Source: Deltaproteobacteria bacterium
Lineage (GTDB): Bacteria > Chloroflexota > Dehalococcoidia > Dehalococcoidales > BS750m-G39
NCBI GenBank assembly: GCA_030606505.1
Contig: JAUWGI010000018.1
Location: 1 to 8,578 of the forward strand
Reading direction: 5' to 3'
DNA: 8,578 bases
The notes under the pieces were generated by a model. The model was not told where the DNA came from and did not search any database. It saw nothing but the letters and a program-made list of their open reading frames with translations. A program made the translations under genes and the position numbers. Shown piece by piece: positions 1-4,196 of the stretch. The first letter of the stretch is position 1; every line of letters starts with the position of its first letter.

Positions 1-754
1 AGGCGCCGATAATCATCCCCTCCAGAACGCTGTGGGGATTGCCCTCCATCAAGCTCCGGTCCATGAAGGCACCGGGGTCGCCTTCGTCACAGTTACAGAT
101 TACATAGCGTTTTTCGCCTTCGGCATCACGGCAGCTCTGCCATTTATCGCCGGTGGGGAATCCGCCGCCGCCCCGCCCCCGCAGGCCCGACTTCTTGACC
201 TCGTCAATGATTCCCTCAGGGGTCATATTAGAAAGCGCCTTGCCCAGAGCGGCGTAGCCGCCGACGGCTAAATAGTCTTCAATGCGGGTGGGGTCAATCA
301 GGCCATTGTTGCCGAAGACCAGCCGTTTCTGTTTCTGATAGAAGGGCACTTCAGGCTCATAGGTTATCTTCTGGCCGGTATCGGGGTCAACATAGAGCAA
401 CCGGTCAATGACCTTGCCCTTGATAATAGTCTCGGCAATTATCTCGGGGACATCTTTTTCACTGACCTTCTGGTAGAAAATATCTTTGGGCTTGATGACC
501 ACCAGCGGCCCCTTCTCGCAGAAGCCGTGGCAGCCGGTGACCTTTACGTCTATTTTATTGGCCAGTTTATTCTTTGTAATCTCTGCTTTAAAGGCGTCGC
601 TGACCCCCTCGCTGCCGAAAGAGTGGCAGCCGGTGCCGCCGCATACCGTTATGCAGGGCTTGTCCGGATCTCTCTCGGCCGCTATGGCGTTGCGGAGAGC
701 CTCAAGCTTGACCACAGAGCCCAGCCAGTTAGATGTTTGCTGCTTCTTCGCCAT
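1..754 (-). CDS. NuoF/HydB-like FMN- and NADH-binding subunit, C-terminus off the left edge
   Basis: First 251 residues of a NuoF/HydB/HndC-type flavoprotein that moves electrons between NAD(H), FMN and Fe-S clusters in the cytoplasm. Residues about 30-120 form a thioredoxin-like [2Fe-2S] domain with C38-x4-C43 and C75-x3-C79. Residues 145-251 enter the flavoprotein core: LRGRGGGGFPTGDKW (191-205) is the FMN-binding glycine-rich motif and CNCDEGDPGAFMDR (220-233) belongs to the NADH/FMN site. The fused N-terminal ferredoxin domain is the arrangement of HydB, HndC and HymB (usually about 570-630 residues) rather than of classical complex I NuoF. The distal NADH-binding part and the C-terminal Fe-S region lie outside the window. 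The ATG shares one base with the stop of the NuoE-like gene (TAATG). The Shine-Dalgarno is weak (GGAAAG, about 9 nt away), so translation is probably coupled. Position after the por genes suggests it serves the 2-oxoacid oxidoreductase. The family call is firm; the partner is inferred. Confidence 0.93.
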   Translation of the reverse strand, partial: MAKKQQTSNWLGSVVKLEALRNAIAAERDPDKPCITVCGGTGCHSFGSEGVSDAFKAEITKNKLANKIDVKVTGCHGFCEKGPLVVIKPKDIFYQKVSEKDVPEIIAETIIKGKVIDRLLYVDPDTGQKITYEPEVPFYQKQKRLVFGNNGLIDPTRIEDYLAVGGYAALGKALSNMTPEGIIDEVKKSGLRGRGGGGFPTGDKWQSCRDAEGEKRYVICNCDEGDPGAFMDRSLMEGNPHSVLEGMIIGA

Positions 755-1224
755 TACTTATAGCTTTCCAGTAGCGGTTTTACCTTGCTGCCGGTCATCT
801 GCCCCGAATAGTTACCGTCGATGACGACTATCGGCCCCAGGGCGCAGGCCCCGACGCAGTTAACCGTCTCCAGGGTGTATCTCAGATCTTCCGTTGTTTC
901 GCCGGATTTTATGTTAAGCTCCCGCTCAATCTCATCAATGACCCTGACCGCCCCCCGGACGTGGCAGGCAGTGCCCAGGCAGACGTTAATCAGGTGCCGC
1001 CCCCTCGGTTTGAGGCTGAAAGCCTTGAAAAAAGAAGCCACGCTGTAGACCTGGCTTAAGGGGACATCCAGACCCTCGCCGACAAGCACCAGGGTTTCCT
1101 TGGGCAGGTAGTTGTACTCCGCCTGGACATCCTGCAAAATCGGCACCAGCATCCCGGGGTCGCTCTGGTACCGGGCCAGTATCGATTTTACCTTCTGCCC
1201 GGTCGGCTTAACTTCAGCCTTCAA
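754..1224 (-). CDS. NuoE/HydC-like thioredoxin-fold [2Fe-2S] subunit
   Basis: Complete 156-residue NuoE-type subunit (24 kDa family), a normal length for the family. It carries one [2Fe-2S] cluster and relays electrons to or from the FMN subunit. The ligands are visible as C82-x4-C87 (VCLGTAC) and C123-x3-C127 (NCVGAC), after a helical N-terminal part containing the typical LVPILQDVQAEYNYLP stretch (residues 26-41). The start is TTG at 1224-1222, supported by an AAGGAG ribosome-binding site 7 nt upstream; the next in-frame Met is residue 25, which would remove conserved helix. It overlaps the porB end by 11 nt and its TAA stop overlaps the nuoF-like ATG by one base. In bifurcating hydrogenases and NADH dehydrogenases this subunit always pairs with a NuoF/HydB protein, as here. 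Its placement behind porB instead of hydrogenase or complex I genes is the odd point. Confidence 0.93.
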   Translation of the reverse strand: MKAEVKPTGQKVKSILARYQSDPGMLVPILQDVQAEYNYLPKETLVLVGEGLDVPLSQVYSVASFFKAFSLKPRGRHLINVCLGTACHVRGAVRVIDEIERELNIKSGETTEDLRYTLETVNCVGACALGPIVVIDGNYSGQMTGSKVKPLLESYK

Positions 1225-2140
1225 CAGCTCTCTCCTTGAGTTCGGCGTAGTCAGTAGTTACCCGCTGCTGTATCTTTTCGATAATATCCTCGGACAGGTG
1301 CCTGAATCTTCCCTGAAGCTTCATGTAGGCAGTAACCGGCTTGAGCCTGGGGAAATCGAAATTAAGCTTATACTGGCCGTTCTCCACCTCGTAGAGGGGG
1401 AATATCCCGGTCTCTACCGCCAGGCGGCCCAGCTTGACCGATAAATCCACGGGGCATCTCCAGCCGGTGGGGCAGACCGACAATATATGAACGTAGGCCG
1501 GGCCCGGTGTGGCCGCCGCCTTCTCCACCTTGTCCATCAGGTCAAAGGGGTAGCTGGGGCAGGCCGTTGCCACGTAGGGGATATTATGGGCGGCGGCGAT
1601 TGCCGGCATATTCTTCTTCCAGCTGACCTGGCCGATGCTCACCTTGCCCGCCGGAGAGGTGGTGGTGGAAGCGCCGTAGGGGGTGGACGAAGAGCGCTGT
1701 ATTCCGGTATTCATATAGGCTTCGTTGTCGAAGCACAAATAGACGAAGTTGTGCCCCCGCTCCATAGCCCCCGACAGCGCCTGGAGGCCGATATCGCTGG
1801 TGCCACCGTCGCCGGCCATAGCTACCACCGTGATATCCTGTTGGGCTATGCGGCCCTTCTTCATCAGCATCTTTAATCCCGACTCTATTCCGGAAGCCAC
1901 CGCCGCCGTGTTCTCGAACAGGGTGTGAATCCAGGGGACTTTCCAGGAAGTAGTCGGCAGGGGGGAGGAGACTATCTCCATGCAGCCGGTGGCGCTGGCG
2001 ATGATGACATTCTGCCCCAGCGCCTTGCAGGCCAGCCGCACCGCCAGGGCTTCGCCACAGCCGATGCAGGCCCGGTGTCCGGGGGCAAAGTTTTCTTTCT
2101 TGGTTACCAGTCTGGGGACATAGACGCCGTAGTTCTGCAT
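1214..2140 (-). CDS. porB: Pyruvate/2-oxoacid:ferredoxin oxidoreductase, beta (TPP-binding) subunit
   Basis: A 308-residue PorB, the usual size. This cytoplasmic subunit binds thiamine pyrophosphate and a proximal [4Fe-4S] cluster and decarboxylates the 2-oxoacid to give acyl-CoA. Cluster ligands fit the PorB pattern: C25-x2-C28 (ACIGC), C53 (TGC) and C223 (SVCPTGW). The TPP motif begins with GDGG (110-113) and continues to the DNEAYMNTGIQRS block (138-150), followed by STPYGASTTTSPAG (152-165). These blocks are characteristic of four-subunit pyruvate and 2-oxoisovalerate oxidoreductases. Pyruvate is the likeliest substrate, but valine-type oxoacids cannot be excluded from sequence alone. The ATG overlaps the porA stop by one base (TAATG), with GGTGAG as ribosome-binding site. 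The TGA stop lies inside the next gene. Confidence 0.95.
   Translation of the reverse strand: MQNYGVYVPRLVTKKENFAPGHRACIGCGEALAVRLACKALGQNVIIASATGCMEIVSSPLPTTSWKVPWIHTLFENTAAVASGIESGLKMLMKKGRIAQQDITVVAMAGDGGTSDIGLQALSGAMERGHNFVYLCFDNEAYMNTGIQRSSSTPYGASTTTSPAGKVSIGQVSWKKNMPAIAAAHNIPYVATACPSYPFDLMDKVEKAAATPGPAYVHILSVCPTGWRCPVDLSVKLGRLAVETGIFPLYEVENGQYKLNFDFPRLKPVTAYMKLQGRFRHLSEDIIEKIQQRVTTDYAELKERAVEG
1232..1237 (-). promoter_or_regulatory. Ribosome-binding site of the nuoE-like gene
   Basis: AAGGAG on the minus strand, 7 nt before the TTG codon at 1224. It lies inside the end of porB and supports the non-ATG start of the nuoE-like gene within the 11-nt overlap. Confidence 0.6.
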
Positions 2141-3620: not shown

Positions 3621-3623
3621 CCC

Positions 3624-4196
3624 CTATAGCTCCTTCACCTGAGTATCTTCGTAAGCCTTTTTCATAGCGTTGACATTTCTTTCGGCGATGCGGCCGAAGC
3701 GGTTGTTCAGCGGCTCGACCACCGATTCCAGCTCGACCACGCCGGTGGCCCTAATCAGGGCACCGACCATGGTGGTATTGGTGATGGGAACACCTAAAAC
3801 CTCTCTGGCGATAGCGCTGGCGTCAACCTTGGCTATTCTGCACCTGGTCTTGAACCGGGCGGCGATATCCTCGAACGATTTTTTGGTGTTAATCACCAGC
3901 AGGCCGTTTTCTTTGAGGCCGGAGAGAACATTGACAATGCTGAGCAGGCCGGGGTCAAGCACCACCACCACGTCAGGATGGGTAATTTCCGCCCTTATCC
4001 TGATGGGCTGCTGGCTATCTATCCGAACGAAAGCCAGCACCGGGGCGCCCCTGCGCTCCGGGCCGAAGCTGGGGAAGGCCTGGGCGTACTTGCCCTCGCT
4101 GATAGCCGCCTGCGCCACCAGCTCCGCCGAGGTGACCGCTCCCTGCCCGCCCCGACCGTGCCATCTGATTTCAATGAGTCCGTTTTTGCCTGCCAA
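3624..4196 (-). CDS. porG: Pyruvate/2-oxoacid:ferredoxin oxidoreductase, gamma subunit
   Basis: A 190-residue PorG, normal length. This subunit completes the alpha-beta-gamma-delta heterotetramer and contributes to CoA binding and complex stability. Hallmarks are IRWHGRGGQGAVTSAEL (10-26), AFPSFGPERRGAPV (40-53), VLDPGLL (79-85) and the ITNTTMVGAL block (138-147). The start is TTG at 4196-4194, with AAGAGG 5 nt upstream. A TAA in the same frame 9 nt before it excludes any start further upstream, and translation from TTG gives the conserved N-terminus without loss. It is the first protein gene of the operon, 27 nt after the tRNA-Arg gene, with porD 3 nt behind. The gamma-delta-alpha-beta order matches Thermotoga-type and archaeal pyruvate oxidoreductases. 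Confidence 0.95.
   Translation of the reverse strand: MAGKNGLIEIRWHGRGGQGAVTSAELVAQAAISEGKYAQAFPSFGPERRGAPVLAFVRIDSQQPIRIRAEITHPDVVVVLDPGLLSIVNVLSGLKENGLLVINTKKSFEDIAARFKTRCRIAKVDASAIAREVLGVPITNTTMVGALIRATGVVELESVVEPLNNRFGRIAERNVNAMKKAYEDTQVKEL

What the first reader, a model, noticed from the sequence alone, without database searches (positions are those of the whole stretch)
1..4196. Pyruvate oxidoreductase operon with built-in NuoE/NuoF (HydC/HydB-like) NADH module
Seen: porG-porD-porA-porB run into a NuoE-like and a NuoF-like gene with one-base or 11-base overlaps, with no hydrogenase, formate dehydrogenase or complex I gene between them. Known: NuoE/NuoF homologues are the NAD(H)/FMN core of complex I and, as HydC/HydB, of electron-bifurcating hydrogenases, whereas PorGDAB normally gives electrons to free ferredoxin. 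Inference: the six proteins may form one complex that oxidises pyruvate with NAD+ as acceptor, or that couples pyruvate, ferredoxin and NAD(H) by flavin-based bifurcation or confurcation. NAD-linked 2-oxoacid oxidoreductases with a flavoprotein subunit are known for phenylglyoxylate, but a PorGDAB-NuoEF arrangement is not standard.
Basis: partly seen in the sequence, partly recalled or inferred. Interest (0 to 1): 0.72.

Follow-up and report, generated by a model that had tools for sequence, protein, structure and literature searches.

The report
Pyruvate oxidoreductase with NADH/ferredoxin module
This contig carries pyruvate oxidoreductase genes joined to an NADH-binding module, a further copy of a gene set (Por-Bfu) already predicted by others to share the electrons of pyruvate between NAD and ferredoxin; in relatives the module beside the same pyruvate genes has been trimmed, replaced or lost.

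Summary
In detail: porG-porD-porA-porB-nuoE-nuoF run head to tail on the minus strand, but nuoF is cut at codon 251 because the window is a whole contig. Relatives supply the rest: in 21 of 61 genomes the operon continues into a full HydB-type nuoF (~620 aa) and a ~240-aa HydA/NuoG-N-terminus-like protein with no catalytic domain. Added here: bifurcation-core cluster ligands are kept in 34 of 34 full-length por-linked BfuB; yet beside the same por genes, mostly in one slot between tRNA-Arg(CCG) and tRNA-Pro(TGG), other loci have BfuB without its ferredoxin-exit clusters (5), a GltD-like FAD protein in place of BfuCB (7), BfuA alone (5), only the C-terminal half of BfuA (6) or nothing (11 bacterial, 10 archaeal). 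Por thus appears to have an exchangeable acceptor module, with the C-terminal half of BfuA as the likely plug. One complex, electron route and bifurcation are inferred, not shown.

The parts
4223..4297 (-). tRNA-Arg(CCG), upstream border of the conserved slot; ends 26 bases before porG
   Evidence: ARAGORN, Rfam; same tRNA upstream in 63 of 77 bacterial loci with room to see it
3624..4196 (-). porG, gamma subunit
   Evidence: Pfam POR 1.4e-42; NCBIfam PRK08534 227 bits, cut-off 225
3315..3620 (-). porD, two [4Fe-4S] ferredoxin-like subunit
   Evidence: Pfam Fer4; 8 cluster Cys in 77 of 77 PorD aligned
2140..3315 (-). porA, alpha subunit
   Evidence: Pfam POR_N 1.1e-70, PFOR_II 7e-28
1214..2140 (-). 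porB, beta subunit with TPP site and one [4Fe-4S]
   Evidence: NCBIfam PRK11865 above cut-off; GDG and four Cys in 101 of 101 PorB aligned
754..1224 (-). nuoE/hydC-like bfuC, [2Fe-2S] cluster C1
   Evidence: Pfam 3.3e-48; best solved match HydC of a bifurcating NiFe hydrogenase, 7t2r_C; four Cys in 45 of 46 aligned, the other being cut
2..754 (-). nuoF/hydB-like bfuB, first 251 codons, cut by the contig end; holds the B5 [2Fe-2S] ligands and the first FMN loop
   Evidence: Pfam; B5 Cys and FMN loop; 89% identical to the congener's full BfuB

Best explanation
The six genes are the visible part of a Por-Bfu operon (likely seven genes, the last off the contig) whose products are predicted to form one complex that would couple CoA-dependent oxidation of pyruvate, or its reversal, to NAD+ and ferredoxin together by FMN/Fe-S electron bifurcation. 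Inferred path: TPP in PorAB, the PorB cluster, the two PorD clusters, the adaptor BfuA (two [4Fe-4S], one [2Fe-2S]), cluster B1 and FMN of BfuB; from there a hydride would go to NAD+ and single electrons through C1 (BfuC), B2, B3 and B4 to ferredoxin, as proposed for the Bfu family. Shown: gene order, cluster ligands, variation in relatives. Inferred: one complex, route, bifurcation, direction, and (from a congener 89-94.5% identical in these genes) the rest of bfuB and bfuA in this organism.
For: Overlapping gene order kept: 28 of 43 judgeable genomes have bfuC after porB, 21 with the complete set. BfuB is closest to bifurcating HydB/BfuB chains (7t2r, 9mqx, 8a6t, 7q4v). B5, B1 and B2 ligands (with the His that PMC9304861 gives as missing in non-bifurcating homologues) in 39 of 39 complete por-linked BfuB, B3/B4 ligands in 34 of 39. 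BfuA has no catalytic domain and no His-ligated cluster motif in 54 of 54, as defined for Type 2 Bfu. BfuA or its C-terminal half stays beside por in 11 loci that have no flavoprotein gene there, which points to physical contact of BfuA with Por. PorA and BfuB distances correlate (r 0.79, n 36, 0 of 999 permutations as high; no species-tree control). PMC9304861 reports, citing a study I did not see, similar expression of all these genes in D. mccartyi 195.
Against: The window shows neither B1-B4 nor bfuA. Of 43 judgeable genomes, 15 keep this por without bfuC next to it, 8 of them with no module gene at all or only a relic, so Por can work without it. Stand-alone BfuCBA sets exist in the same genomes (L054, L056) and por-linked BfuB are not strictly one group in the tree. 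In the D. mccartyi complexome PorA, PorB and PorG migrate together, PorD was not detected and the passages I saw do not mention the NADH module (PMC6005880). PMC9304861 itself notes that it is unclear why a donor as low as pyruvate should need bifurcation.
Confidence: 0.65

Rival explanations
1. Two enzymes from one operon: an ordinary pyruvate:ferredoxin oxidoreductase, and a separate BfuABC flavoprotein that meets it only through soluble ferredoxin and NAD(H).
For: Por persists without the module in relatives; stand-alone BfuCBA paralogues; complexome with PorA/B/G and no reported NADH module (PMC6005880).
Against: BfuA has no catalytic site of its own, and BfuA or its C-terminal half is kept at por where BfuCB is gone: 11 loci. 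In 2 genomes with solitary BfuA (G025, G055) no NuoE homologue at all was found.
Confidence: 0.2
2. One complex, but linear: pyruvate oxidised with NAD+ as sole acceptor, without bifurcation, working like phenylglyoxylate dehydrogenase.
For: Five relatives have BfuB without the B3/B4 ferredoxin exit yet keep FMN, B1, B2 and B5; seven have a GltD-like FAD/NAD(P) protein instead.
Against: The congener G001 and 33 other complete copies keep B3/B4 and B2. The window's own B3/B4 region is off the contig.
Confidence: 0.12
3. NuoE/NuoF belong to a hydrogenase, formate dehydrogenase or complex I encoded beyond the contig end, and por is merely next to them.
For: None beyond sequence kinship of the NuoE/NuoF pair with such enzymes.
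Against: In the 39 loci with a complete bfuB, bfuA follows in 38 (L152 is the exception) and no catalytic gene stands between; tRNA-Pro(TGG) is found next in 20 of 31 complete and 5 of 5 trimmed sets with room to see it.
Confidence: 0.03

Closest known systems
Por-Bfu (Type 2 Bfu; Schut et al. 2022, PMC9304861), e.g. Dehalococcoides mccartyi
   Same: porGDAB plus BfuABC, BfuA without His-ligated cluster, two flanking tRNA genes, Chloroflexota
   Different: Nothing in plan; here the contig ends inside bfuB. The trimmed, GltD-like and stump variants of relatives are not mentioned in the parts of that paper I saw, and 'GltD', 'glutamate synthase' and 'truncated' do not occur in its main text; supplements not seen
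Bifurcating [NiFe]/[FeFe] hydrogenases HydABC (7t2r, 8a6t, 7q4v)
   Same: HydC/HydB core with the same cluster ligands
   Different: No hydrogenase domain or subunit; PorGDAB in its place
PDB 9mqx (G-like 247 aa, 51 kD and 24 kD subunits)
   Same: Closest solved BfuA, including the CxxC...CxxC end; same three-subunit plan
   Different: Its catalytic partner is unknown to me: no paper found by the entry code
PorGDAB pyruvate:ferredoxin oxidoreductase (9bt4)
   Same: All four subunits
   Different: That enzyme has no NADH module (recalled)
Phenylglyoxylate:NAD+ oxidoreductase PadEFGHI
   Same: NAD-linked 2-oxoacid oxidoreductase with related subunits
   Different: Scores far below the Pad cut-offs (e.g. 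alpha 309 against 700 bits); its flavoprotein is not HydB-like (recalled)

Membership tests
Bfu family | BfuC [2Fe-2S] cluster C1 | tested here: met
   Four Cys in the window's NuoE
Bfu family | B5 [2Fe-2S] in the N-terminal domain of BfuB | tested here: met
   Four Cys in the window's fragment
Bfu family | B1 and the unusual B2 cluster (Cys, Thr/Cys, His, Cys, Cys) | tested here: inconclusive
   Off the contig in the window; met in the congener G001 and in 39 of 39 complete por-linked copies, with Ser or Val at the second position in 5
Bfu family | B3/B4 clusters for ferredoxin | tested here: inconclusive
   Off the contig in the window; met in G001 and 34 of 39 complete copies, absent in 5
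Bfu family | Coupled reduction of NAD+ and ferredoxin | not testable with these tools
   Needs enzyme assay
Por-Bfu (Type 2) | porGDAB with BfuABC in one gene cluster | tested here: met
   Six of seven genes in the window; seventh in relatives only, 21 of 61 genomes
Por-Bfu (Type 2) | BfuA without the His-ligated A3 cluster | tested here: inconclusive
   bfuA is off the contig; motif absent in 54 of 54 relatives' BfuA
Complex I NADH module (NuoEFG) | NuoF without N-terminal 2Fe-2S domain, followed by nuoG and other nuo genes | tested here: not met
   N-terminal 2Fe-2S domain present in the window; no nuoG follows in complete relatives
Phenylglyoxylate dehydrogenase (Pad) | Profile cut-offs of Pad subunits | tested here: not met
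   PadE 183/300, PadF 79/150, PadG 309/700, PadI 252/700 bits
Pyruvate:ferredoxin oxidoreductase (PorGDAB) | Four subunits with TPP motif and three [4Fe-4S] ligand sets | tested here: met
   PorB and PorG above NCBIfam cut-offs, PorA and PorD clear members below equivalog cut-offs; GDG and Cys sets

The most novel reading that the evidence does not exclude
One chromosomal slot between tRNA-Arg(CCG) and tRNA-Pro(TGG) holds a constant pyruvate oxidoreductase with an exchangeable electron-acceptor socket. Evolution has plugged in a bifurcating FMN core, cut that core back by removing its ferredoxin exit, replaced it with an NfnL/GltD-like FAD unit, or unplugged it, while the C-terminal half of BfuA (two [4Fe-4S] plus a CxxC...CxxC end) is the plug that docks on Por. 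The set is a natural mutant series that shows which clusters bifurcation needs.
Probability: 0.5. Interest if true: 0.66.

Novelty: new member of a known kind. Interest (0 to 1): 0.48.

Why it matters
No NifJ-type pyruvate oxidoreductase was found in 61 of 61 genomes of this order, so this Por lineage may be their main link between pyruvate and acetyl-CoA (other routes were not searched). If Por-Bfu is one complex, that step is wired to NAD(H) and ferredoxin at once. Relatives without B3/B4, with a GltD-like replacement, or with a BfuA stump offer ready-made comparisons for an unsettled mechanism (bifurcation at one FMN with neighbouring Fe-S clusters) without designed mutants.

Tried and rejected
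I looked for the missing part of bfuB and for bfuA elsewhere in the bin. The candidates (C105, C13, C71, C15) are 41-64% identical to the congener's proteins and so look like paralogues; the true continuation was not found in this 67.5%-complete bin.

A hydrogenase, formate dehydrogenase or complex I partner was considered and not seen in 39 loci with complete bfuB. Phenylglyoxylate dehydrogenase: profile scores far below cut-off. That por and module share a history: distances correlate, but without a species-tree control this shows only long joint residence. I first took the GltD-like change in L145 for exchange of a whole cassette with BfuA; the BfuA tree puts L145's BfuA among the BfuCB-linked ones, so I dropped that. 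I first counted at least 28 state changes on the Por tree, but contig-cut sets had been a state of their own; with all BfuCB sets merged it is 18.

The window's DNA had no match among plasmids. Searches for papers with 'Por-Bfu', Dehalococcoides terms, Bfu terms and 'bifurcating pyruvate' gave no Por-Bfu experiment (listings only). The promoter scan gave nothing for the minus strand.
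Full report
What is there. The window is a whole 8578-base contig (C40) of a 67.5%-complete genome bin. On the minus strand it carries porG, porD, porA, porB, a NuoE-like gene and the first 251 codons of a NuoF-like gene, with 1-base overlaps at three junctions, 11 bases at porB/nuoE and a 3-base gap at porG/porD. A tRNA-Arg(CCG) ends 26 bases before porG. 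Contigs of the bin's family match, by length, records titled Dehalococcoidia or Dehalococcoidales, so the organism is likely a Dehalococcoidia (Chloroflexota); its congener G001 matches a record titled Deltaproteobacteria, which I take for a mislabel.

What follows nuoF. In relatives the gene runs to about 620 aa and a ~240-aa protein follows. In the congener G001 the long protein has FMN, SLBB, NADH_4Fe-4S and C-terminal 2x[4Fe-4S] domains, the short one a 2Fe-2S domain and two [4Fe-4S] motifs but no catalytic domain. The best solved matches are subunits of bifurcating hydrogenases and of 9mqx. The B2 ligands given in PMC9304861 align with Cys465, Thr503, His552, Cys558 and Cys563 of G001. 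In 39 of 39 complete por-linked BfuB the Cys, His, Cys and Cys are kept; the second position is Thr in 31, Ser in 3, Cys in 3 and Val in 2. The window's own fragment has the B5 ligands and the first FMN loop.

How general. Of 61 genomes of the order (own included), 51 have this PorB lineage. In 8 the contig ends too soon. Of the other 43, 28 have bfuC right after porB (21 complete sets, 6 cut by contig ends, 1 trimmed), 4 a GltD-like gene plus bfuA, 2 bfuA alone, 1 a bfuA stump, 6 nothing, 1 a bfuC relic with stop codons, and 1 a porB in two pieces with nothing after it. The first loci were chosen by NuoE hits and the rest added by PorB hits; the count is over all PorB hits. No NifJ-type enzyme reached E 1e-100 in 61 of 61 genomes (the control rang in 4 of 14 named genomes); other routes to acetyl-CoA were not searched. 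Of the 14 genomes without bfuC at por (relic and cut ones left out), 6 (G011, G014, G019, G025, G043, G055) have no NuoE hit anywhere, so borrowing BfuC from elsewhere is unlikely there, within the limits of draft genomes.

Variation beside the same por. The other 92: complete set 34, set cut 12, trimmed set 5, GltD-like + bfuA 7, bfuA alone 5, bfuA stump 6, none 21 (10 archaeal, mostly titled Methanophagales or Methanosarcinales), relic 1, broken porB 1. On a PorA+PorB tree of 96 of the 105 (quick search, LG+G4, SH-aLRT only) the states, all BfuCB sets merged and cut loci left out, need at least 18 changes, 17 without archaea. L145 and L148 are 96% and 93% identical in PorA and PorB but carry the GltD-like gene and BfuCB respectively; their BfuA are 62% identical, and L145's BfuA groups with BfuCB-linked ones (support 85-90, long branch), so here BfuCB seems to have been replaced while BfuA stayed.

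The slot. tRNA-Arg(CCG) lies upstream in 63 of 77 bacterial loci with room to see it, tRNA-Pro(TGG) downstream in 54 of 74; both are seen with complete, GltD-like, lone-bfuA, stump and no-module loci, and the trimmed class has them in 2 of 2 and 5 of 5; in archaea 0 of 9 and 0 of 10. The script missed at least one tRNA that one search lists (L151), so these are lower bounds. Misses are mainly in complete sets (21 of 29 and 20 of 31); among them are L094, L120, L124, L129 and L152, titled proteobacteria and apart on the tree, where the set sits elsewhere; L123 and L158 likewise show no such tRNA.

What the variants suggest. Four BfuB (L099, L134, L147, L155) lack the B3/B4 domain but keep a short tail; L183 simply ends there, and bfuA follows at once in each. 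The four group together and L183 apart, so two losses are likely. The GltD-like protein has NADH_4Fe-4S, Fer4_20 and Pyr_redox_2 domains but no FMN domain. It matches about residues 30-635 of its 647 to ORFs of ~1020-1070 aa in the same order, one of which is a NuoF-GltD fusion, so it looks like such a fusion without its FMN half. As the GltD-like subunit of NfnAB carries that enzyme's bifurcating FAD (recalled), I do not say this variant cannot bifurcate. In the BfuA tree the stumps sit with 5 of 6 GltD-linked BfuA, and the 5 solitary BfuA with BfuCB-linked ones. All 51 BfuA that were called complete, stumps included, keep 8 cluster Cys and 4 C-terminal Cys; the 6 stumps lack the 2Fe-2S domain (L129 and L165 have bfuA by tblastn but were not called and are not counted). 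Hence the inference that the C-terminal half of BfuA docks on Por and the N-terminal half faces the flavoprotein.

What is known. Schut et al. 2022 (PMC9304861; seen: abstract, section 5 parts 1-2 of 3, section 6 part 1 of 2, passages; [quoted passage not shown] mccartyi and evenly expressed there; they suggest pyruvate synthesis from NADH and ferredoxin. The window is a member of that group. 'Por-Bfu' occurs in no other paper of the held library. In the D. mccartyi complexome (PMC6005880, passages) PorA and PorB cluster, PorG peaks with PorA, PorD was not identified, and no NADH module is mentioned with them: against a stable complex, or a sign that it falls apart on the gel. PMC3971608 (passages) reports NuoEF operons of unclear function in sediment Chloroflexi, and PMC5736913 (passages) discusses nuoEFG in related genomes.

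Direction. Table 1 of PMC9304861 gives -500 mV for pyruvate and -280 to -320 mV for NAD(H): oxidation can feed NAD+ and ferredoxin, while NADH is a poor donor for pyruvate synthesis. Relatives that lost the ferredoxin exit, if active through NAD(H) only, would thus more likely oxidise pyruvate. This is inference, and it differs from the direction that paper suggests.

Limits. The window shows neither B1-B4 nor bfuA. The trees are quick ones. Most genomes are drafts, though each main class recurs in several bins. PorA/BfuB correlation lacks a species-tree control, and por-linked BfuB are not strictly one group (3 changes). Complex, route, bifurcation and direction are untested.

Noticed in passing
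L064:8702-15107 (G032, contig C26): A bfuC-bfuB pair sits inside a split hdrA: hdrC, hdrB, N-terminal third of hdrA, bfuC, bfuB, then a 592-aa fusion of BfuA with the rest of HdrA. It looks like a hybrid of two bifurcation systems.
   Followed up: partly
L054:6027-11209 and L056:1315-6495; bfuC-bfuB also in L053 and L055: A stand-alone bfuC-bfuB-bfuA set without por, beside a divergent histidine kinase and LuxR-type response regulator pair; partner enzyme unknown.
   Followed up: partly
L111, L121, L122, L128, L131, L132, L135, L137, L156, L157: Archaeal records (mostly Methanophagales/ANME-1 and Methanosarcinales) encode PorB 71-75% identical to the window's, without Bfu genes next to it: likely transfer between archaea and these bacteria.
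   Followed up: partly
L146 / L177 (G038:C45:2399-2584): A bfuC relic with two in-frame stops follows porB, a module caught in decay.
   Followed up: partly
L181 (G019:C15:62190-63028): porB is read in two adjoining pieces, with no module after it; frameshift or assembly error not told apart.
   Followed up: no
L190:2878-9112 (G001): A molybdopterin oxidoreductase with NuoG-like N-terminus, a NuoE and a 1022-aa NuoF-GltD fusion stand in a row, possibly a formate dehydrogenase-like complex with two flavin modules.
   Followed up: partly
BfuA position 96 (numbering of L033:6860-7573): A Cys between the 2Fe-2S and 4Fe-4S parts is kept in 30 of 34 BfuCB-linked BfuA but in 1 of 11 GltD-linked or solitary ones; meaning unknown.
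   Followed up: no
window 4363-6621: A double universal-stress-protein gene and a CitMHS/ArsB-type transporter lie upstream on the same strand; both recur upstream of por in several relatives, e.g. L033, L035, L036.
   Followed up: no
L080, L081 (records of G001 and G002): Members of the window's genus are titled Deltaproteobacteria although family members are titled Dehalococcoidia; probably wrong labels.
   Followed up: no
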